Assembly (NCBI RefSeq): GCF_030814215.1
Contig: NZ_JAUSUT010000001.1
Span: forward strand, 372,001-436,000
Length of the DNA stretch: 64,000 nucleotides
Source: Amycolatopsis thermophila
GTDB taxonomy: Bacteria > Actinomycetota > Actinomycetes > Mycobacteriales > Pseudonocardiaceae
Reading direction: 5' to 3'
This document shows positions 1 through 13,732 of the stretch, in pieces. Position 1 is the first letter of the stretch. Each line of letters opens with the position of its first letter. The position numbers were made by a program, and so were the translations under genes. The notes beneath the pieces are model-generated. The model saw nothing but the letters and a program-made list of their open reading frames with translations, made no database searches and was not told the origin of the DNA.

Positions 1-1209
1 GGCCTGACCACGATGACCGCGTGCGGTGACAGCCCGCGCGTCATGCTCAACTCGCCGGTGGCCGGCATCGCCGAGGACGAGGTCATCGACGGCACCCCGG
101 CGCTGGACGAGATCAAACGCCGCTACCTGGGCAAGCCCGAGTACGCGAACCTGCCGCGCAAGTTCAAGACCGCGGTGTCCGGGCTGCCGGACGTGGCGCA
201 CGAGATCCACGACGTCGCGTTCGTCGGGGTCGAGCACCCCGAGCACGGTCCGGGCTTCGACGTGTGGGTCGGCGGCGGCCTGTCGACCAACCCGATGATC
301 GGCGTCCGGCTGGGCGCGTGGGTCCCCAGCGACGAGGTGCCCGACGTGTGGGAGGGCGTCGTGAGCATCTTCCGCGACTACGGCTACCGCCGCCTGCGCT
401 CGCGGGCGCGGCTGAAGTTCCTGGTCAAGGACTGGGGTGCGGAGAAGTTCCGCGAAGTTCTCGAATCCGAGTACCTGAAGCGGAAGATGATCGACGGCCC
501 CGCGCCCGAGGCGCCCGCCGTGCAGCGCGACCACGTCGGCGTGCACCGGCAGAAGGACGGCAAGTTCTACGTCGGCGCCGCGCCGATCGCCGGCCGCGTG
601 TCCGGTTCGACGCTGATCAAGGTGGCCAAGGCCGCCGAGCGCGCCGGGTCGAGCCGGGTGCGGCTGACCCCGTTGCAGAAGCTGCTCGTGCTCGACGTGG
701 CCGAGGACGACGTGCCGGGCCTGCAGGCGGAACTGGCCGAGCTGGGCCTGCCGACCGAGCCGAGCCCGTGGCGGCGCGGCGTGATGGCCTGCACCGGCAT
801 CGAGTTCTGCAAGCTCGCGATCGTCGAGACCAAGGAGCGCGCGAAGGACCTGGTGGCCGCGCTCGAGGAGCGGCTGGCCGACATCCAGGGCCAGGTGGAG
901 AACCCGGTCTCGGTCCACATCAACGGCTGCCCGAACTCGTGCGCCCGCATCCAGACCGCCGACATCGGCCTCAAGGGCCAGATCGTGACCGACGACGACG
1001 GCAACCAGGTCGAGGGCTTCCAGGTGCACCTGGGCGGCGGGCTCGGCCTGGACACCGGGTTCGGCCGGAAGCTGCGCGGCCACAAGGTGACCGGCGACGA
1101 GCTGATCGATTACGTCGAGCGGGTCGTGCGCAACTACCTGACGCAGCGGGTAGACGGCGAGCGGTTCCCGCAGTGGGTGGCCCGCGCGGACGAGGCCGAT
1201 CTCCGATGA
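1..1209 (+). CDS. sir: Sulfite reductase (ferredoxin type), 3' part
   Basis: The reading frame is open at the window edge, so the N-terminus is missing. The product reduces sulfite to sulfide with siroheme and a [4Fe-4S] cluster, the last step of assimilatory sulfate reduction in the cytoplasm. The cluster cysteines are visible as CTGIEFC (codons at 790 and 808) and CPNSC (codons at 928 and 940), the C-x5-C / C-x3-C arrangement of the nitrite/sulfite reductase family. Repeated ferredoxin-like half-domains precede them. Nitrite reductases share these motifs, but the following cysH, cysD and cysN genes make sulfite the likely substrate. The stop overlaps the start of the zinc-ribbon gene (ATGA), so the genes are translationally coupled. 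Confidence 0.93.
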   Translation, partial: GLTTMTACGDSPRVMLNSPVAGIAEDEVIDGTPALDEIKRRYLGKPEYANLPRKFKTAVSGLPDVAHEIHDVAFVGVEHPEHGPGFDVWVGGGLSTNPMIGVRLGAWVPSDEVPDVWEGVVSIFRDYGYRRLRSRARLKFLVKDWGAEKFREVLESEYLKRKMIDGPAPEAPAVQRDHVGVHRQKDGKFYVGAAPIAGRVSGSTLIKVAKAAERAGSSRVRLTPLQKLLVLDVAEDDVPGLQAELAELGLPTEPSPWRRGVMACTGIEFCKLAIVETKERAKDLVAALEERLADIQGQVENPVSVHINGCPNSCARIQTADIGLKGQIVTDDDGNQVEGFQVHLGGGLGLDTGFGRKLRGHKVTGDELIDYVERVVRNYLTQRVDGERFPQWVARADEADLR

Positions 1210-7806: not shown

Positions 7807-8685
7807 GTGAAGATCCGGATCGGGGTGGGGTTCGGGGCGGAGACGCCGCCGGGTGAGCTGCCGTCGCTGGTGGACCGGCTGGAGGCCGCCGGGGTCGACT
7901 CGGTGTGGTTCTCCGAGCAGGTGTATTCGGACGCGGTGGACCCGTTCATCGGGATGGCGCACGCCCTGGCGCGGACCTCGCGGCTGAAGGCGGGCACGTC
8001 GGTGGCGGTCCTGCCGGGCCGGCATCCCGTGCTGGTGGCGAAGCAGATCGCGTCGCTGGCCGCGCTGGCGCCGAAGCGCGTGTTGCCGGTGTTCGGGCTG
8101 CGCCCGGCGCGGCGCGCGGAGTGGGCGCTGTTCGACGTCCCGGCCGGTGCGCGGGCCGCCGTGTTCGACGAGTCGCTGCGGTTGCTGCGGACGGCGTTGT
8201 CGGGTGGCGGTGACTTCGCCGGGGAGTTCTGGAAGCTCGACGGCGTCAGCCCCGGCCCGCAGCCGCCGCGCCCGGTGGACATCTGGCTGGGCGGCAGCGC
8301 GCCCGCGGCGTTCCGCCGGATCGGCCGGTTCGGCGACGGGTGGCTCGGCAGCTTCCTGTCCCCGGCGGACGCGGGCCGCGCGCGAGCCGCGATCGAGGAG
8401 GCCGCGGCGTCGGCGGGACGTGAGATCGAGCCGGACCACTACGGGATGAGCCTGATGCTCAGCGAGTCGGGGATCACGCCGGAGCTGGCCGCGGCGACGC
8501 GGGTGCGCCGCCCGGAGACCGACCCGGCCGAGGTGATCGCGTCGGACTGGTCTTCACTCCACCGCCTGCTTGACGCCCACCTGGAAGCCGGGCTGACGAA
8601 GTTCGTGGTCTACCACCGGGGCCCGTCGTCGTTCGAGGAGTTCCTCGACCGCTTCGTCGAGGAGCTGCTGCCGCGGCAGAACTGA
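7807..8685 (+). CDS. LLM-class F420-dependent oxidoreductase
   Basis: A 292-residue luciferase-like (TIM-barrel) protein. Family signs are the N-terminal VGFGAETPPGELPSLVDRLEAAGVDSVWFSEQ segment, the LKAGTSVAVLPGRHPVLVAKQIASLA strand and the IWLGGSAPAAFRRIGRFGDGWL region. Such proteins in actinomycetes normally bind coenzyme F420 rather than FMN. The substrate cannot be told. The GTG at 7807 lies 16 bases after the chelatase stop. It converges with the lipoprotein array, and the two stops are one base apart. Confidence 0.85.
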   Translation: MKIRIGVGFGAETPPGELPSLVDRLEAAGVDSVWFSEQVYSDAVDPFIGMAHALARTSRLKAGTSVAVLPGRHPVLVAKQIASLAALAPKRVLPVFGLRPARRAEWALFDVPAGARAAVFDESLRLLRTALSGGGDFAGEFWKLDGVSPGPQPPRPVDIWLGGSAPAAFRRIGRFGDGWLGSFLSPADAGRARAAIEEAAASAGREIEPDHYGMSLMLSESGITPELAAATRVRRPETDPAEVIASDWSSLHRLLDAHLEAGLTKFVVYHRGPSSFEEFLDRFVEELLPRQN

Positions 8686-8686
8686 G

Positions 8687-9205
8687 CTATCGAACCTTCG
8701 GCAAGAGCGGTTCGAGCTTCTCGGCGAGGGCTTGGGCGTCGACGCAGGCTTGCGGATCGCGCGGGCCGGTGGCGAGAGTCATCAGCACGAGAGCGCGCGC
8801 GTGCTCGCCGACTTCGACCGCGATCGCACACCCCCCGGTGGGAATGTCCGCCTGCATGGCGCGACGTCCGTTGATCGTGAGGTCAACGACGTCCTTGTTC
8901 GTCGCCGCGAACTCACGGAGCCCTTGCACCGGATCCAGAGCCAGGCCGTTCCCCATGACACCCGGCTTCGTCGCATCGCACTCATTGCGTCGGCTCTTGT
9001 TCTCGCCAGGCTCATAACCCTGTCCGGCGTTGAGTTGATCCAGCACTTGACACGCGTTCATACCGGCGAACACATCCGCGCTGGACATGGGACTTGTTTC
9101 CGGCGCCGGCGAGGCTGTTCCAGCCACCGTGGCGGTACACGCGGATACCGTGGCCCCCAAGGCAGCGACAACAAGGGCCTGACGAAGACGAGCGTTGATG
9201 GTCAC
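8687..9205 (-). CDS. DUF3558-type lipoprotein, cassette 4
   Basis: A 172-residue exported lipoprotein: a hydrophobic signal segment ends at Cys23 in the lipobox VSAC, followed by a Ser/Pro linker and a compact domain with conserved CQVLDQL, GLALDPVQGLREF and GGCAIAVEVGEHARALV blocks. The conserved Cys pair in the mature domain may form a disulfide. The function of this actinobacterial family is unknown to me. The GTG start overlaps the stop of the upstream partner gene (GTGA). This is the most diverged of the four tandem copies and the last in the array. Confidence 0.85.
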   Translation of the reverse strand: MTINARLRQALVVAALGATVSACTATVAGTASPAPETSPMSSADVFAGMNACQVLDQLNAGQGYEPGENKSRRNECDATKPGVMGNGLALDPVQGLREFAATNKDVVDLTINGRRAMQADIPTGGCAIAVEVGEHARALVLMTLATGPRDPQACVDAQALAEKLEPLLPKVR

Positions 9206-9631
9206 CGAGCGTCCTGGTCTTTGAAGGTGTGGAGAGCCTCGGATGCGGCCGCGTCCGAGGCGTCGTACTTGCTGATCGCGATCTCGATAGCCTCATGCAG
9301 GCTGACGAGCATCTCTTGAGCGGCGAGGAACACCCGGACCAAGGATTGGTCGTCCGAGTCCATCGCGGTGAGGAACGGCCTGTATTCCTCGTTGCCCAGT
9401 ATCGGTGCCTGCTGGAGCCGGTAGAGACGACGGCCGACTTCCCTCATCCGGTCCTGCATCTGCGTCAGGCGGCACGACAGCGCAACCTGCACCATGGCTC
9501 GAGGTCTGTACGAACCCTCGCTCGTCGCGGCGAACTCAAAGGCCCTGTACCGGGTCCAACGCAAGCCCGTACGTACCGAACTCGGACTTCCGGCATCGTG
9601 CTGCTTCCAGGTCAGCGCTGAGCTTGGTCAC
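9202..9631 (-). pseudogene. ESX-like partner gene, cassette 4 (frame-shifted chimera)
   Basis: The reading frame opens with GTG at 9631, overlapping the stop of the cassette 3 lipoprotein, and encodes MTKLSADLEAARCRKSE. It then runs into a copy of the lipoprotein-gene segment for FGTYGLALDPVQGL and stops at CTT-TGA (9536-9541). The conserved C-terminal helices (LTQMQDRM ... ISKYDASD ... FKDQD) continue in the next frame down to 9202. Restoring one frame shift (+1) would give about 142 residues, close to the 146 of cassette 1. The C-terminus carries a YxxxD motif like type VII secretion substrates. It may be decayed, a sequencing artefact, or translated by frameshifting. Confidence 0.6.
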
Positions 9632-10158
9632 CGCACCTTGGGAAGCAACGGCTCGAGCTTTTCGGCAAGGGCTTGGGCGTCGACGCAGGCCTGCGGGTCG
9701 CGCGGACCCGAAATCAGCGACACCTGCACCATCGCGCGAGCATGCTCCCCGACCTCGATCACGATCGCGCACCCACCCAGCGGAATGGGCGCTTGCAGCG
9801 CAGCACGTCCGTTGACCGAGGTCTCCACCACACCCTCGGTGGTCTCGGCGAACTCGCGAAGCCCCTGCACAGGATCCAACGCCAGACCGTACGCTCCGAA
9901 GTCCGGCTTCGTGGCACCGCATTCATTGCGCCTGCTCTTGTTCTCGCCCGGATTGAAACCTTGTCCGGCAGTAAGCTGGTCCAGCACTTGACACGCGTTG
10001 AGGCCCGCGAAGACATCGGCGTACGTCGCGCTCGGACTGGGCCCGGCGCTGGGAGCAGGCGAAGCTGTGCCCGCTACCCTGCTGGTGCACGCTGTCGCGG
10101 CCACCGCCAGACACGCAAAGCCCGCAACGGCCTGGACGATGCGTACGTTGAACGTCAC
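9628..10158 (-). CDS. DUF3558-type lipoprotein, cassette 3
   Basis: A 176-residue lipoprotein with lipobox AATAC (Cys24) and a Ser/Pro-rich linker, then the same domain as its neighbours (CQVLDQLTAGQGF, GLALDPVQGLREF, GGCAIVIEVGEHARAMV). The 3' half (9610-9850) is almost base-for-base identical to the same part of cassette 2 (10551-10791), while the 5' half differs, which indicates recent gene conversion. The GTG at 10158 overlaps the partner gene stop. Confidence 0.87.
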   Translation of the reverse strand: MTFNVRIVQAVAGFACLAVAATACTSRVAGTASPAPSAGPSPSATYADVFAGLNACQVLDQLTAGQGFNPGENKSRRNECGATKPDFGAYGLALDPVQGLREFAETTEGVVETSVNGRAALQAPIPLGGCAIVIEVGEHARAMVQVSLISGPRDPQACVDAQALAEKLEPLLPKVR

Positions 10159-10572
10159 TGTGATTCCTGATCCTTGAACATCCGGACAGCCTGGGCCGCC
10201 GCTTCGTCGGAGGCGTCGTACTTGCTGATCGCGATCTCGACCGCCTCGCGAAGGCTAGCGAGCATATCCTGAACCGAGTAGAAGACCCGGACGAGAGACT
10301 GCTCGTCCGAATCCATCGCGGCAAGGAAGTGTGCTGCGGCCTTCTTGGCGTACTCGTCGTTGCCGAGCTTCGGTGCCTGCTGGAGCCGGTAGAGCCGGCG
10401 GCCGACTTCCCTCATCCGGTCCTGCATCTGCGTCAGGCGCCCCGACAGCACGACGCGCCACTCGACATGCGGATGGACCGCACAACGTCCCCATGGCCCT
10501 AGGGTGCTCGCCGAGCTTGATCTCGGACATCCGGAACCGTGCTGCTTCCAGGTCAGCACTGAGCTTGGTCAC
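10155..10572 (-). pseudogene. ESX-like partner gene, cassette 3 (frame-shifted)
   Basis: It starts with GTG at 10572 overlapping the cassette 2 lipoprotein stop and encodes MTKLSADLEAARFRMSE, then a segment EIKLGEHPRAM that resembles the lipoprotein block EVGEHARAM. The C-terminal half from LSGRLTQMQDRM to KDQESQ is in another frame and ends at 10155. The length (418 bases) needs the same +1 shift as cassettes 2 and 4. The C-terminal half is fully helical, conserved, and contains ISKYDASD. A shorter product from a start inside the second frame (ATG near 10559) is possible but would lack the conserved N-terminus. Confidence 0.55.
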
Positions 10573-11087
10573 CGCACCTTGGGAAGCAACGGCTCGAGCT
10601 TTTCGGCAAGGGCTTGGGCGTCGACGCAGGCCTGCGGGTCGCGCGGCCCCGAAATCAGCGACACCTGCACCATCGCGCGAGCATGCTCCCCGACCTCGAT
10701 CACGATCGCGCACCCACCCAGCGGAATGGGCGCTTGCAGCGCAGCACGTCCGTTGACCGAGGTCTCCACCACACCCTCGGTGGTCTCGGCGTATTCACGA
10801 AGCCCCTGAACAGGATCAAGTGCCAGACCGTACGTGCCGAACTCGTGCTTCAGAACATCACACTCGTTGCGCCGACTGATGTTCTCCCCGGGCCCGAAAC
10901 CCTGTCCCGCGGTGAGCTGCTCGAGGACCTGGCAAGCGCTGAGGCCGGCGAAAACATCGGAGTTCGCAGCACTCGAACTAGGTGCCGGCGACGCAGTGCC
11001 CGCCACGGTGGTGGTGCAGGCAGCCGTAGCCATTGCCAGACCCACCATCGCTGCGGAGGCCTGGACGATGCGAACGTTGACGGTCAC
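10569..11087 (-). CDS. DUF3558-type lipoprotein, cassette 2
   Basis: A 172-residue lipoprotein (lipobox AAC with Cys23 in TAACTTTVAG) with the domain blocks CQVLEQLTAGQGF, GLALDPVQGLREY and GGCAIVIEVGEHARAMV. The protein C-terminus is identical to that of cassette 3, and the DNA has only a couple of mismatches over about 240 bases. The GTG at 11087 overlaps the stop of the partner gene, so each lipoprotein is coupled to the ESX-like gene before it. Confidence 0.87.
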   Translation of the reverse strand: MTVNVRIVQASAAMVGLAMATAACTTTVAGTASPAPSSSAANSDVFAGLSACQVLEQLTAGQGFGPGENISRRNECDVLKHEFGTYGLALDPVQGLREYAETTEGVVETSVNGRAALQAPIPLGGCAIVIEVGEHARAMVQVSLISGPRDPQACVDAQALAEKLEPLLPKVR

Positions 11088-11513
11088 CAGTCCTGGTCCT
11101 TGAAGGTCATGAGAGCCTGGGTCGCTGCCTCGTCCGAGGCGTCATACTTGCTGATCGCGATCTCGATAGCCTCATGCAGGCTAACGAGCATATCTTGAGC
11201 GGCGAGGAACACCCGGACCAGGGATTGGTCATCCCAGTCCATCGCGGTGAGGAACTGCTTGGCGTATTCATCGTTGCCCAGTTTCGGCGCCTGCCGGAGC
11301 CGGTAGAGCCGACGGCTGACTTCCCTCATCCGGTCCTGCATCTGCGTCAGGCGGCACGACAGCGCAACCTGCATCGCGGCCCGAGGTCTGTACGAACCCT
11401 CGCTCGTCGCGGCGAACTCACAGGCCCTGTACCGGGTCCAACGCAAGCCCGTACGTACCGAACTCGGACATCCGGAACCGTGCTGCTTCCAGGTCAGCAC
11501 TGAGCTTGGTCAC
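11084..11513 (-). pseudogene. ESX-like partner gene, cassette 2 (frame-shifted chimera)
   Basis: It begins with GTG at 11513 (overlapping the cassette 1 lipoprotein stop): MTKLSADLEAARFRMSE fused to FGTYGLALDPVQGL, then TGA after CTG. The DNA of 11389-11467 aligns with the lipoprotein gene of cassette 1 at 11708-11786 except for a missing GA, which causes the frame change. After the change the frame reads EFAATSEG ... LTQMQDRM ... LVRVFLAAQDML ... ISKYDASD and ends at 11084. The structure is the same as in cassette 4, so this chimera was itself duplicated. Confidence 0.6.
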
Positions 11514-12025
11514 CGCACCTTGGGAAGCAACGGCTCGAGCTTTTCGGCAAGGGCTTGGGCGTCGACGCACGCTTGCTGATCGTCGTTGGACGCCAGTGAT
11601 ACCTGCAGCATCGCGCGAGCGTGCTCACCGACCTCGATCACGACGGCGCATCCACCCAAAGTAATCGGCGCCTGCAGCGCGGCACGTCCGTTGACCGACG
11701 TCTCTACGACACCCGCGCTCGTCGCGGCGAACTCACGAAGGCCCTGCACCGGGTCCAGCGCCAGACCGTACGTCGAGACACCTGGTTTCGTGACATCGCA
11801 CTCGTTGCGCCTGCTGATGTTCTCCCCCGGCTCGAAGCCTTGTCCCGTCGTGAGCTGCTCCAGGACTCGACACGCGTTTAGGCCAGCGAACACGTCGGAG
11901 CTCGCTTGGCTCGAAGTAGGCGCGGGGGATGCTGTGCCCGTCACCGTGCTCGTGCATGCAGTCGTGGTCAGCGCCAGTCCCACGACACCTGCGACGGCCT
12001 GGGCGATGCGAACGTTGACAGTCAC
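11510..12025 (-). CDS. DUF3558-type lipoprotein, cassette 1
   Basis: A 171-residue lipoprotein with signal peptide and lipobox TTAC (Cys24), a short Ala/Ser/Pro linker and the blocks CRVLEQLTTGQGF, GLALDPVQGLREF and GGCAVVIEVGEHARAML. It is the first lipoprotein of the four-cassette array and the likely source of the internal segment now found in the partner genes of cassettes 2 and 4. The GTG at 12025 overlaps the upstream stop by four bases. Confidence 0.87.
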   Translation of the reverse strand: MTVNVRIAQAVAGVVGLALTTTACTSTVTGTASPAPTSSQASSDVFAGLNACRVLEQLTTGQGFEPGENISRRNECDVTKPGVSTYGLALDPVQGLREFAATSAGVVETSVNGRAALQAPITLGGCAVVIEVGEHARAMLQVSLASNDDQQACVDAQALAEKLEPLLPKVR

Positions 12026-12462
12026 CGGTCTTGGTCCTTGAACGTGTGGAGAGCCTGGGTCGCCGCGTCGTCCGAGGCGTCGTACTTGCTGATCGCAATA
12101 TCGATGGCCTGCCGGAGGCTGTCGAGCATGTCCTGAGTCGCGAGGAAGACCCGGACGAGCGATCGCTCATCCTAGTCCATCGCGGCGAGAAAATGCGCCG
12201 CGACCTTCCTCGCGTATTCGTCGTTGCCGAGCTTCGGCGCCACCTGCAGCCGGTCGATCCGCTGGGCCGCCTGCCGCATCCGGTCCTGCATCTGCGTCAC
12301 CGCTCGCCCCAGGTGGGTCCCAGTGTCTTCGTCCACCGCCCACTTGCCGGCCTTCGCGTCGGCCAGCATGCGCTTCGCATCCGCGTTCATGCGCTGCAGG
12401 TTGTCCTCGCCGCCGAACACGCCCGCGATTTGTGCAGCCCCGGTAGAGCCCGCCTCAGCCAC
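12022..12462 (-). pseudogene. ESX-like partner gene, cassette 1 (full length, in-frame TAG)
   Basis: The only partner gene with an undisturbed frame along its length: GTG at 12462, preceded by GAGGGGGAGGGG, then MAEAGSTGAAQIAGVFGG and a helical body with THLGRAVTQMQDRM. A TAG at 12172-12174 replaces the Trp or Ser codon found in the other copies (AAMD-stop-DERSLVRVF). Beyond it the frame continues to ISKYDASD and FKDQDR, ending at 12022. Read through, it is 146 residues, a normal length for WXG100/ESX-like proteins, with a YxxxD tail. One base change (TGG to TAG) explains the stop; it could be a real mutation or a sequence error. Confidence 0.65.
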
Positions 12463-12599
12463 ACCGAACCCCTCCCCCTCTCCTGGTCGCGCTCCACGGC
12501 ACGATAGCGCGGGCCTCACGCGGTGTCACAGCTTCACCCCGGTGCGCACCCGCTCACAGCAGCAGGCCCACGGCGGCCCGATCCAACTATGGTGAGCCC

Positions 12600-13373
12600 G
12601 TGACTGATGAACTGGTGCATTACTCAGTGGCGAGTGGTGTCGCGACCATCACCCTCGACTCGCCGCACAATCGGAACGCCCTGTCCGCCCAGCTGCGTCG
12701 TGAGCTGTCCGACTCGCTGGCCAAGGCGAAGGCCGACGACGCCGTGCGCGTGATCGTGCTCACCCACACCGGCCGGGTGTTCTGCGCCGGCATGGATCTC
12801 AAGGAGGCCAAGGGCGCCGGGGCCGGCGACCAGGGCGTGAACGAGTTCCCGCGGATCCTGGAGCAGATCTGGACGAGCCCGAAGCCGGTCGTGGCGAAGC
12901 TGTCCGGCGTCGCCCGCGCGGGTGGGGTCGGGATGGTCGCCGCGGCGGACATCGTCGTCGCCGCGCACGAGGTCACCTTCGCGTTCTCCGAGGTCCGCAT
13001 CGGCGTCGTGCCGGCCGTGATCTCGCTGACCGTCCTGCCGCGCGTCAACCCGCGCGCCGCGCAGGAACTGTTCCTCACCGGTGAGGTGTTCGACGCCGCG
13101 CGCGCCGCCGAGATCGGACTCATCAACAAGGCCGTGGACGCCGACCGGCTCGACGCCGAGACCGACCGCTACGTCCAGGCGCTCACCCTCGGCGGCCCGG
13201 CCGCGCTGGCCGCCACCAAACAGCTCCTGGCGAGCCCCCGCCCGGCCACGCCGTCCGACGGGTTCCCGGACATGCTGAAGCTGTCCGCACAGTTCTTCGC
13301 CAGCGACGAGGGCCAGGAAGGCATCCGCGCCTTCGCCGAGAAGCGCAAACCGAACTGGGTGCCGGCGGACTAG
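12600..13373 (+). CDS. Enoyl-CoA hydratase/isomerase family protein
   Basis: A 257-residue crotonase-fold protein. The oxyanion-hole segments are visible as FCAGMDLKEAK (near 61-71) and GVARAGGVGMVAAADIVVA (near 107-125). The position often held by a catalytic Glu in hydratases reads SEVRIGVVPAVIS, so the exact reaction (hydratase, isomerase or other CoA chemistry) is unsure. The GTG at 12600 is the first start after the divergent partner gene. It ends four bases inside the convergent barstar gene. Confidence 0.88.
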   Translation: MTDELVHYSVASGVATITLDSPHNRNALSAQLRRELSDSLAKAKADDAVRVIVLTHTGRVFCAGMDLKEAKGAGAGDQGVNEFPRILEQIWTSPKPVVAKLSGVARAGGVGMVAAADIVVAAHEVTFAFSEVRIGVVPAVISLTVLPRVNPRAAQELFLTGEVFDAARAAEIGLINKAVDADRLDAETDRYVQALTLGGPAALAATKQLLASPRPATPSDGFPDMLKLSAQFFASDEGQEGIRAFAEKRKPNWVPAD

Positions 13374-13732
13374 TCGTCGGCGAGGGCGACCGTCAGCCGG
13401 CGGCTGTCGGCGCGGTCGCCGCCCGGCGCGAGCGCCCGCTCGGCGTCCGACAGGACGCTGCGGATCGCCAGGTACGACTTGGGGTCGGCCTGCTTGAGCA
13501 GGTCCGATCCCGCCCACACCAGCACGTGCTCGCCGTAGGGCAGCCACGACAGGTCGGTGAGGCAGTCGTAGAGCGCGTCCAGGTTGCGGCCGAACCAGTC
13601 CGGAAAGGACAACGCGGACGCGATGGCGTCGAGCGCGGACATCTTGTCCGCGGGCCGGCCATCGATGAGGTGCGAGTAGGCACCACGCGCGCGGGCCTGC
13701 TCGACGATCGTCTTCGAAGACGTCTGGGACAT
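13370..13732 (-). CDS. Barstar-family ribonuclease inhibitor
   Basis: A 120-residue cytoplasmic protein with the barstar fold pattern: an N-terminal strand with HLIDGRPADKMSALDAIASALSFPDWFGRNLDALYDCLTDLSWLP, matching the Asp/Trp/Asn-rich surface with which barstar blocks the active site of barnase. It is the last gene of a three-gene operon and directly follows the secreted ribonuclease gene, so it is very likely the cognate inhibitor protecting the producer. The ATG at 13732 follows GAACTCCC rather than a clear Shine-Dalgarno sequence. Confidence 0.9.
   Translation of the reverse strand: MSQTSSKTIVEQARARGAYSHLIDGRPADKMSALDAIASALSFPDWFGRNLDALYDCLTDLSWLPYGEHVLVWAGSDLLKQADPKSYLAIRSVLSDAERALAPGGDRADSRRLTVALADD

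What the first reader, a model, noticed from the sequence alone, without database searches (positions are those of the whole stretch)
8687..12462. Four tandem cassettes of an ESX-like protein gene plus a DUF3558-type lipoprotein gene
Seen: four repeats on the minus strand, each a helical ~140-residue protein ending in ISKYDASD followed by a lipoprotein, joined by GTGA overlaps both within and between cassettes, so the whole array reads as one operon. Family knowledge: small helical proteins with YxxxD/E tails are typical type VII secretion substrates, and DUF3558 lipoproteins have no known role. Inference: a secreted protein with a dedicated surface lipoprotein (receptor, chaperone or immunity protein), amplified locally.
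Basis: partly seen in the sequence, partly recalled or inferred. Interest (0 to 1): 0.72.

Follow-up and report, generated by a model that had tools for sequence, protein, structure and literature searches.

The report
Secreted-protein and lipoprotein gene-pair array
A soil actinomycete carries four tandem copies of a two-gene unit, a small protein bearing the export tag of the type VII secretion machine followed by a surface lipoprotein; the unit recurs in related bacteria and seems undescribed, but here the lipoprotein genes look intact while every copy of the small-protein gene is damaged.

Summary
The array is real: four cassettes on the minus strand, 8687-12462. All four DUF3558 lipoprotein genes are open. 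The four 'ESX-like' genes are not four good copies: the first has an in-frame TAG at codon 97, and in the other three the N-terminal half, with the family's WAVDEETG motif, is replaced by debris of a lipoprotein gene read in another frame.

Relatives show the intact unit. Eight of 18 other genomes of the genus set hold 1-3 such genes plus lipoprotein genes at the same site; three of them have a single intact cassette. In the loci sampled, 71 of 89 distinct partner proteins are followed directly by a DUF3558 lipoprotein and 14 by a long PPE-like protein. The most conserved residue is the tyrosine of a YxxxD/E motif, the known type VII export signal (Tyr 88 of 88, D/E 87 of 88).

Best reading: a PE/EspC-like type VII substrate whose PPE companion is replaced by a surface lipoprotein, amplified in tandem; in this window the lipoproteins survive and the substrate genes decay. 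Export and binding are inferred, not shown. 'DUF3558' occurs in one paper of the library searched.

The parts
12501..12529 (-). promoter-like site GTGACA-17-TATCGT before the first partner gene
   Evidence: consensus scan: 2 sites found in 8400-12700, 0.4 expected in shuffles; similar GTGACA...TA(C/T)(C/G)GT stretches before first partner genes of relatives, by eye
12022..12462 (-). partner gene 1: full-length frame (GTG start) interrupted by TAG at 12174-12172; YDASD at 12084-12070
   Evidence: profile match 3-145 of 146
11510..12025 (-). DUF3558 lipoprotein gene 1, open
   Evidence: Pfam 29.3 bits, just under cut-off 34.1; cysteines 24, 52, 76, 126, 153
11084..11500 (-). partner ORF 2: C-half of the family behind a lipoprotein-gene fragment; N-half lost
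   Evidence: profile 54-145 only; 87% identity over 79 nt to lipoprotein gene 1
10569..11087 (-). DUF3558 lipoprotein gene 2, open
   Evidence: Pfam 33.5 bits, just under cut-off
10155..10559 (-). partner ORF 3: C-half only behind a different junction
   Evidence: profile 54-145 only; junction seen
9628..10158 (-). DUF3558 lipoprotein gene 3, open
   Evidence: Pfam 35.9 bits, over cut-off
9202..9564 (-). partner ORF 4: C-half behind the same junction as ORF 2; only TTG starts the listed ORF
   Evidence: profile 54-145 only; 87% over 78 nt to lipoprotein gene 1
8687..9205 (-). DUF3558 lipoprotein gene 4, open, last of the array
   Evidence: Pfam 37.9 bits, over cut-off
12600..13373 (+). upstream flank: enoyl-CoA hydratase/isomerase gene, one side of the conserved site
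   Evidence: Pfam ECH_1 182.4 bits
7810..8685 (+). downstream flank: luciferase-like monooxygenase gene, other side of the site
   Evidence: Pfam Bac_luciferase 119 bits

Best explanation
The unit is a two-gene export module: a PE/EspC-like type VII (ESX) substrate and, directly downstream and overlapping it, a DUF3558 lipoprotein. Likely working of an intact unit: the small helical protein is exported by the ESX machine through its C-terminal YxxxD/E signal; the lipoprotein leaves by the general secretory route, is lipid-anchored on the outer face of the membrane and receives, holds or stabilises the exported partner there, in the place that a PPE protein has in related loci. In the window the unit has been amplified to four copies at a fixed chromosomal site and the substrate genes have decayed (one stop, three truncated), so what the array can now supply is mainly four lipoproteins; the remaining partner frames may persist because lipoprotein translation is coupled to them. 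Shown: the anatomy, the damage, the recurrence of the pair, the signal motif, the exchange with PPE-like genes, the copy-number variation at one site. Inferred: export, meeting at the surface, binding, the coupling role of the remnants.
For: 71 of 89 distinct partner-family proteins sampled have a DUF3558 lipoprotein gene directly downstream, Pfam-confirmed in 71 of 71 scanned; 14 of 89 have a long downstream ORF instead, and these with two more of the own genome share an invariant W-x-G, 11 of 16 matching Pfam PPE at E<=0.1. Tyr is invariant (88 of 88) and +4 is D/E in 87 of 88, the most conserved column of 153, matching the published signal (PMC5311947 and PMC3935865, passages). A DUF3558 gene of a genus member follows a protein over Pfam's PE cut-off. 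Single intact cassettes at the same site in three relatives. dN/dS 0.46 between window partner copies 2 and 4 against 0.05-0.26 among the printed pairs of relatives; lipoproteins 0.15-0.21 among window copies.
Against: No Pfam or NCBIfam T7SS family reaches its cut-off for the partner, and the most frequent weak Pfam hit is unrelated (SMBP, 11 of 32). Profile comparison with the EspC family gives only 2%. No significant fold match. No partner-family gene beside the two EccD genes in the fetched pieces. In family f8, 17 of 17 DUF3558 loci have no partner-family match in the flank held, so DUF3558 does not need the partner. Binding between the two proteins was not tested. The dN/dS contrast rests on few sites, and one pair with an intact relative (window copy 1 - L079) also gives 0.44.
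Confidence: 0.55

Rival explanations
1. Immunity reading: the DUF3558 lipoproteins are immunity proteins against type VII-delivered toxins of sibling cells, kept and multiplied as an array, and the small helical protein is a targeting partner for a toxin encoded elsewhere. The window array would then be an orphan immunity array.
For: Lipoproteins outnumber and outlive the partners (window; L075). Precedent: in Staphylococcus aureus the T7SS lipase toxin TslA sits with small helical partners and the immunity lipoprotein TilA, from a variable tandem lipoprotein cluster (PMC10730906, passages).
Against: No toxin-like gene between the flanks of this site; the partner has no extra domain. Neighbours of the other loci beyond the two genes were not searched systematically. 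TilA belongs to DUF576; no link to DUF3558 was tested.
Confidence: 0.2
2. Export-accessory reading: the lipoprotein is an envelope chaperone or assembly factor for type VII export and the small protein its regulator or structural partner, not a cargo.
For: Tight coupling of the genes and many paralogous pairs per genome.
Against: Copy number varies strongly at one site and ten of 19 genus genomes have no cassette there; no pair was found beside the ESX core genes.
Confidence: 0.12
3. Decay reading: the window array as a whole is a relic of a once useful module and now does nothing.
For: All four partner genes are damaged; pieces of a lipoprotein gene lie between cassettes.
Against: Four of four lipoprotein frames are open with their cysteines and dN/dS among window copies is 0.15-0.21, although part of that may reflect the time before duplication.
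Confidence: 0.13

Closest known systems
PE (PF00934) / PPE (PF00823) operon pairs of ESX systems
   Same: Small helical protein with YxxxD/E encoded directly before its companion; in 14 of 89 sampled members the companion is PPE-like
   Different: No PE match for the window's family over cut-off; usual companion is a lipoprotein, not PPE
EspC family (PF10824) and WXG100 family (PF06013, TIGR03930)
   Same: Size class, predicted helices, C-terminal signal of the published extended pattern
   Different: Only sub-threshold matches (EspC 6 of 32 best E 0.02; WXG100 9 of 26 best E 0.011); turn has P-x-L/F-G, not W-x-G; profile comparison with EspC 2%
DUF3558 lipoproteins (PF12079)
   Same: All four window lipoproteins match it
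   Different: Elsewhere (family f8) seen here as tandem lipoprotein genes without the partner
TslA/TilA lipase toxin cluster of Staphylococcus aureus
   Same: Small helical T7SS proteins and variable tandem lipoproteins in one cluster (PMC10730906, passages)
   Different: No toxin gene at this site; the lipoprotein family there is DUF576

Membership tests
Type VII (ESX) substrate, as a functional class | YxxxD/E signal after or within the last helix of a helical hairpin | tested here: met
   Tyr 88 of 88, D/E 87 of 88 in deduplicated family; motif in the 85 residues before it in only 4 of 89; present in all four window frames
Type VII (ESX) substrate, as a functional class | export depends on the ESX machine | not testable with these tools
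   needs an eccC/eccD deletion; two EccD genes are in the genome
WXG100 (PF06013 / TIGR03930) | family profile over cut-off and W-x-G in the turn | tested here: not met
   9 of 26 weak TIGR03930 hits, best E 0.011; turn is P-x-L/F-G
EspC (PF10824) | family profile over cut-off | tested here: not met
   6 of 32 weak hits, best E 0.02; profile comparison 2%
PE (PF00934) | family profile over cut-off | tested here: not met
   no PE hit among the families listed; a different small protein before a DUF3558 gene (L319) is over the cut-off
PE (PF00934) | gene lies directly before a PPE gene | tested here: met
   for 14 of 89 family members, not for the window copies
ESX helical hairpin fold | structure matches a solved WXG100/PE/EspC hairpin | tested here: inconclusive
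   all-helical model, mean pLDDT 74.2, pTM 0.59; no PDB match at E<=0.001; second aligner not available
DUF3558 (PF12079) | family profile over curated cut-off 34.1 bits | tested here: met
   two of four window copies over it (35.9, 37.9), two under it (33.5, 29.3; E 5e-8 and 9.8e-7)
Bacterial lipoprotein | signal peptide with lipobox cysteine | tested here: inconclusive
   Cys at 23/24 after a hydrophobic stretch in all four; the -3 residue is A, T or V (by eye); loose pattern met in 74 of 80 paired lipoproteins; no signal-peptide program on hand
T7SS toxin-immunity lipoprotein (TilA-like) | toxin encoded in the same cluster | tested here: not met
   no toxin-like gene between the flanks of this site; other loci not searched systematically

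The most novel reading that the evidence does not exclude
In the Pseudonocardiaceae, type VII secretion has a second kind of two-gene substrate operon, in which the PPE companion of a PE/EspC-like protein has been exchanged, several times, for a Sec-exported DUF3558 lipoprotein, so that one machine's cargo is met outside the membrane by a partner delivered by another route. DUF3558, a family of unknown function, would then be largely a type VII companion family in these bacteria, and arrays such as the window's would be lipoprotein repertoires grown from it.
Probability: 0.42. Interest if true: 0.78.

Novelty: new variant of a known kind. Interest (0 to 1): 0.6.

Why it matters
Pfam gives DUF3558 no function. 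A recurring operon pair gives it a concrete functional lead (a T7SS-linked surface partner) and gives ESX biology outside mycobacteria a class of candidate substrates with a lipoprotein in the PPE place. Because relatives such as Amycolatopsis tucumanensis and A. thermalba carry single intact cassettes at the same site, both claims can be tested directly.

Tried and rejected
Taking the '1 TGA/TAG/TAA inside' marks as decay of many relatives: rejected, where most are the natural stop just inside the aligned range. Taking the own-genome hit L071 as a member: rejected (E 0.555; no match). Naming the partner through Pfam or NCBIfam: only sub-threshold hits. Solved-structure search by sequence with A1: best E 0.13, a designed-protein name. 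Foldseek for both models: nothing at E<=0.001; the weak lipoprotein matches (BT_1490, PknH sensor domain, Apa, PsbP, the Tse3-Tsi3 entry) are not used as evidence. Looking for partner-family genes beside the two EccD genes: none in the four fetched pieces. A DUF3558 gene always having a small helical gene upstream: not so; in family f8 17 of 17 loci have no match of the partner profile, and in the own genome L004, L015/L018 and L022 have none. Literature: 'DUF3558' gives 1 paper, unrelated by its title; 'type VII secretion' with 'Pseudonocardiaceae' and 'lipoprotein' gives 0; the listings show nothing that I recognised as describing the pair.
Full report
What is there. The window lies at 372001-436000 of a one-contig genome of 7.3 Mb. 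Between an enoyl-CoA hydratase gene (12600-13373, +) and a luciferase-like monooxygenase gene (7810-8685, +) stand four minus-strand cassettes, 8687-12462. G+C is about 0.62-0.67 across them and about 0.73 on either side.

The lipoproteins. All four frames are open, start with GTG in a GTGA overlap, and carry a cysteine at residue 23 or 24 after a hydrophobic stretch and four further cysteines at matching places (copy 3 has one more). They match Pfam DUF3558 with 37.9 and 35.9 bits for copies 4 and 3 (over the cut-off of 34.1) and 33.5 and 29.3 for copies 2 and 1 (under it). The AlphaFold2 model has 102 of 175 residues at pLDDT 90 or more, a beta-rich domain with helices; no PDB match at E<=0.001.

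The partner genes. Gene 1 has the full-length frame from GTG 12462 behind a promoter-like site (12529-12501), but codon 97 is TAG at 12174-12172. ORFs 2-4 match the family only from profile position 54 on. For 2 and 4 the DNA of the N-part is 87% identical over 79 and 78 nt, with gaps, to nt 253-331 of lipoprotein gene 1. Copies 2 and 4 show the same junction, and a 300-nt stretch across it is 95% identical between them, so the damage probably came before that duplication. The frame entered by the GTGA overlap after lipoproteins 1 and 3 ends after 31 codons and is not the partner frame.

The intact unit elsewhere. A search of the 19 genomes of the genus (own included) with the C-half of copy 3 gave matches in 19 of 19 at E<=0.01. 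I fetched 40 regions (seven from the own genome). In one search, 38 of 40 held partner and lipoprotein matches together; of the other two, L069 is followed by a PPE-like gene and L071 is a chance hit. The full-length family is about 148 residues with 28 invariant columns in 32 aligned sequences, among them W-A-V-x-E-E-T-G.

The site. Nine of 19 genus genomes have the module between the same two flanking genes: one partner and one lipoprotein gene in L076, L077 and L080; one partner and two lipoprotein genes in L078 and L079; two partners (one split) and four lipoprotein genes in L072; two partners and three lipoprotein genes plus pieces in L074; three partners and seven lipoprotein matches plus pieces in L075; four and four in the window. 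In the 8-kb pieces of the other ten no cassette was found at E<=1e-4; in seven of these the flanking genes lie about 25-750 bp apart, in three the monooxygenase gene was not found in the piece. In the eight relatives the partner next to the hydratase gene is full length in 8 of 8. Of the seven extra partner copies (window included), L074b and L075b are full length and open (no clear start codon for L075b), while five are split or lack the N-part (L072b, L075c, window 2-4). So a cassette at a fixed site has been amplified, and extra copies broken, more than once.

Selection. Over the partner C-half, pairs of relatives that include L076 or L077 give dN/dS 0.05-0.26; window copies 2 and 4, which seem to have diverged after losing the N-part, give 0.46 (9.8 synonymous and 17.2 non-synonymous changes). 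Window copies against relatives give 0.11-0.44, the high value being copy 1 against L079. Lipoproteins give 0.15-0.21 among window copies and 0.06-0.24 between window copies and three relatives. This hints at relaxed constraint on broken partners and continued constraint on lipoproteins, on few sites.

The wider family. A profile of 32 members found 116 of 297 sampled Pseudonocardiaceae genomes at E<=1e-6. A broader profile of 26 members found 53 of 298 genomes of the order at E<=1e-5, four of them outside the family. Only 12-13 candidates per genome were scored in those searches, so these are lower bounds. I analysed 97 loci; 40 of them are weaker hits that I picked by hand from the list. They hold 98 partner ORFs, 80 followed directly by a DUF3558-like gene by a profile that I iterated on the same candidates. 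Of the 80 I scanned the 71 that were not a second copy of a locus: Pfam DUF3558 in 71 of 71 at E<=0.001. Without duplicates the classes are 71 DUF3558, 14 with a downstream ORF of 300 or more residues, and 4 other (two without a downstream candidate, one at a contig end, one an N-terminal fragment), of 89. The 14 long proteins with two from the own genome share an invariant W-x-G, and 11 of 16 match Pfam PPE at E<=0.1, best 1e-5. On a quick tree of the 89 the exchange between the two companions needs 5 changes; against all other rows the PPE group needs 6, of which starred branches force 4; 35 of 86 inner branches of that tree are unresolved.

The export signal. In the 89 the most conserved of 153 profile columns is the Tyr (88 of 88, one row with a gap); +4 is D (54), E (33) or N (1); +11 is hydrophobic in 77 of 79. 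The pattern occurs in the 85 residues before it in 4 of 89. YxxxD/E is the general type VII signal, placed after the second helix (PMC5311947, passages), and the extended pattern HxxxD/ExxhxxxH is published for WXG100 proteins and shared by EspB, EspC and PE proteins (PMC3935865, passages). The AlphaFold2 model of a relative's partner puts it inside a long C-terminal helix, residues 98-146, at moderate confidence (mean pLDDT 74.2).

Other PE/EspC-like genes before DUF3558. In the own genome two divergent DUF3558 genes (L001, L002) directly follow another kind of small gene, and a third (L003) follows a distant member of the partner family; L004, L015/L018 and L022 show none. Of 13 Pseudonocardiaceae loci fetched by a DUF3558 search, 10 show by eye such a small gene directly upstream, two have a partner-family match downstream instead, and one is unclear; of 17 loci of family f8 none has a partner-family match in the flank held. 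Three f8 genomes have a weak partner-family hit elsewhere, not followed up. Profile comparison links the two kinds of small gene (probability 94%, E 1.3e-7; seven sequences in the second profile), the second kind weakly to EspC (52%), and the window's family not to EspC directly (2%). One DUF3558 gene (G012) follows a protein over Pfam's PE cut-off (26.9 against 22 bits).

How it most likely works. The partner is exported by an ESX machine through its C-terminal signal; the lipoprotein travels by Sec, is anchored outside and receives the partner, in the place that PPE has in sister loci. In the window the substrate is no longer encoded intact, so the array works, if at all, as a lipoprotein source; the open C-halves with their GTGA overlaps may be kept as translational couplers (inference). 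The main rival is immunity, on the model of TslA/TilA (PMC10730906, passages), for which a toxin gene is missing at this site.

Novelty. In the library at hand 'DUF3558' occurs in one paper, unrelated by its title; the listings, and a word search of one T7SS article with 0 occurrences of 'lipoprotein', show no description of the pair. Most subscription papers and all preprints are outside that library. I rate it a new variant of a known kind: PE/PPE-type operon logic with a lipoprotein companion.

Noticed in passing
L065 (own genome 2105000-2113500): A second array in the same genome: partner-family matches at three places (one full length) and six or more DUF3558 lipoprotein matches, one of them in overlapping pieces.
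   Followed up: partly
L115:5935-6891 (Amycolatopsis tucumanensis): One 318-residue ORF holds a partner C-part and a DUF3558 domain in a single frame: a partner-lipoprotein fusion, probably by deletion.
   Followed up: no
L184 (own genome 7230000-7249000): A distant partner-family gene is followed by a PPE-like gene (EspB_PPE, sub-threshold) and then by an EspC-family match at 7237581-7237856: a small type VII substrate cluster away from the EccD genes.
   Followed up: partly
window 13370-13732: A Barstar-family gene (Pfam PF01337, 87.6 bits) ends beside the hydratase gene and is found in 9 of 9 genomes with the module and 8 of 10 without it in the pieces read. No barnase partner was looked for.
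   Followed up: no
loci of family f8, e.g. L258, L259, L281: DUF3558 genes outside the Pseudonocardiaceae often come as two adjacent, slightly overlapping ORFs without a partner-family match nearby.
   Followed up: no
upstream of first partner genes, e.g. L076, L077, L079, L080, L065: A shared stretch of the type GTGACAGCGCGTCAG...CACGCTACGGTGC before several paralogous cassettes (by eye) suggests common regulation.
   Followed up: no
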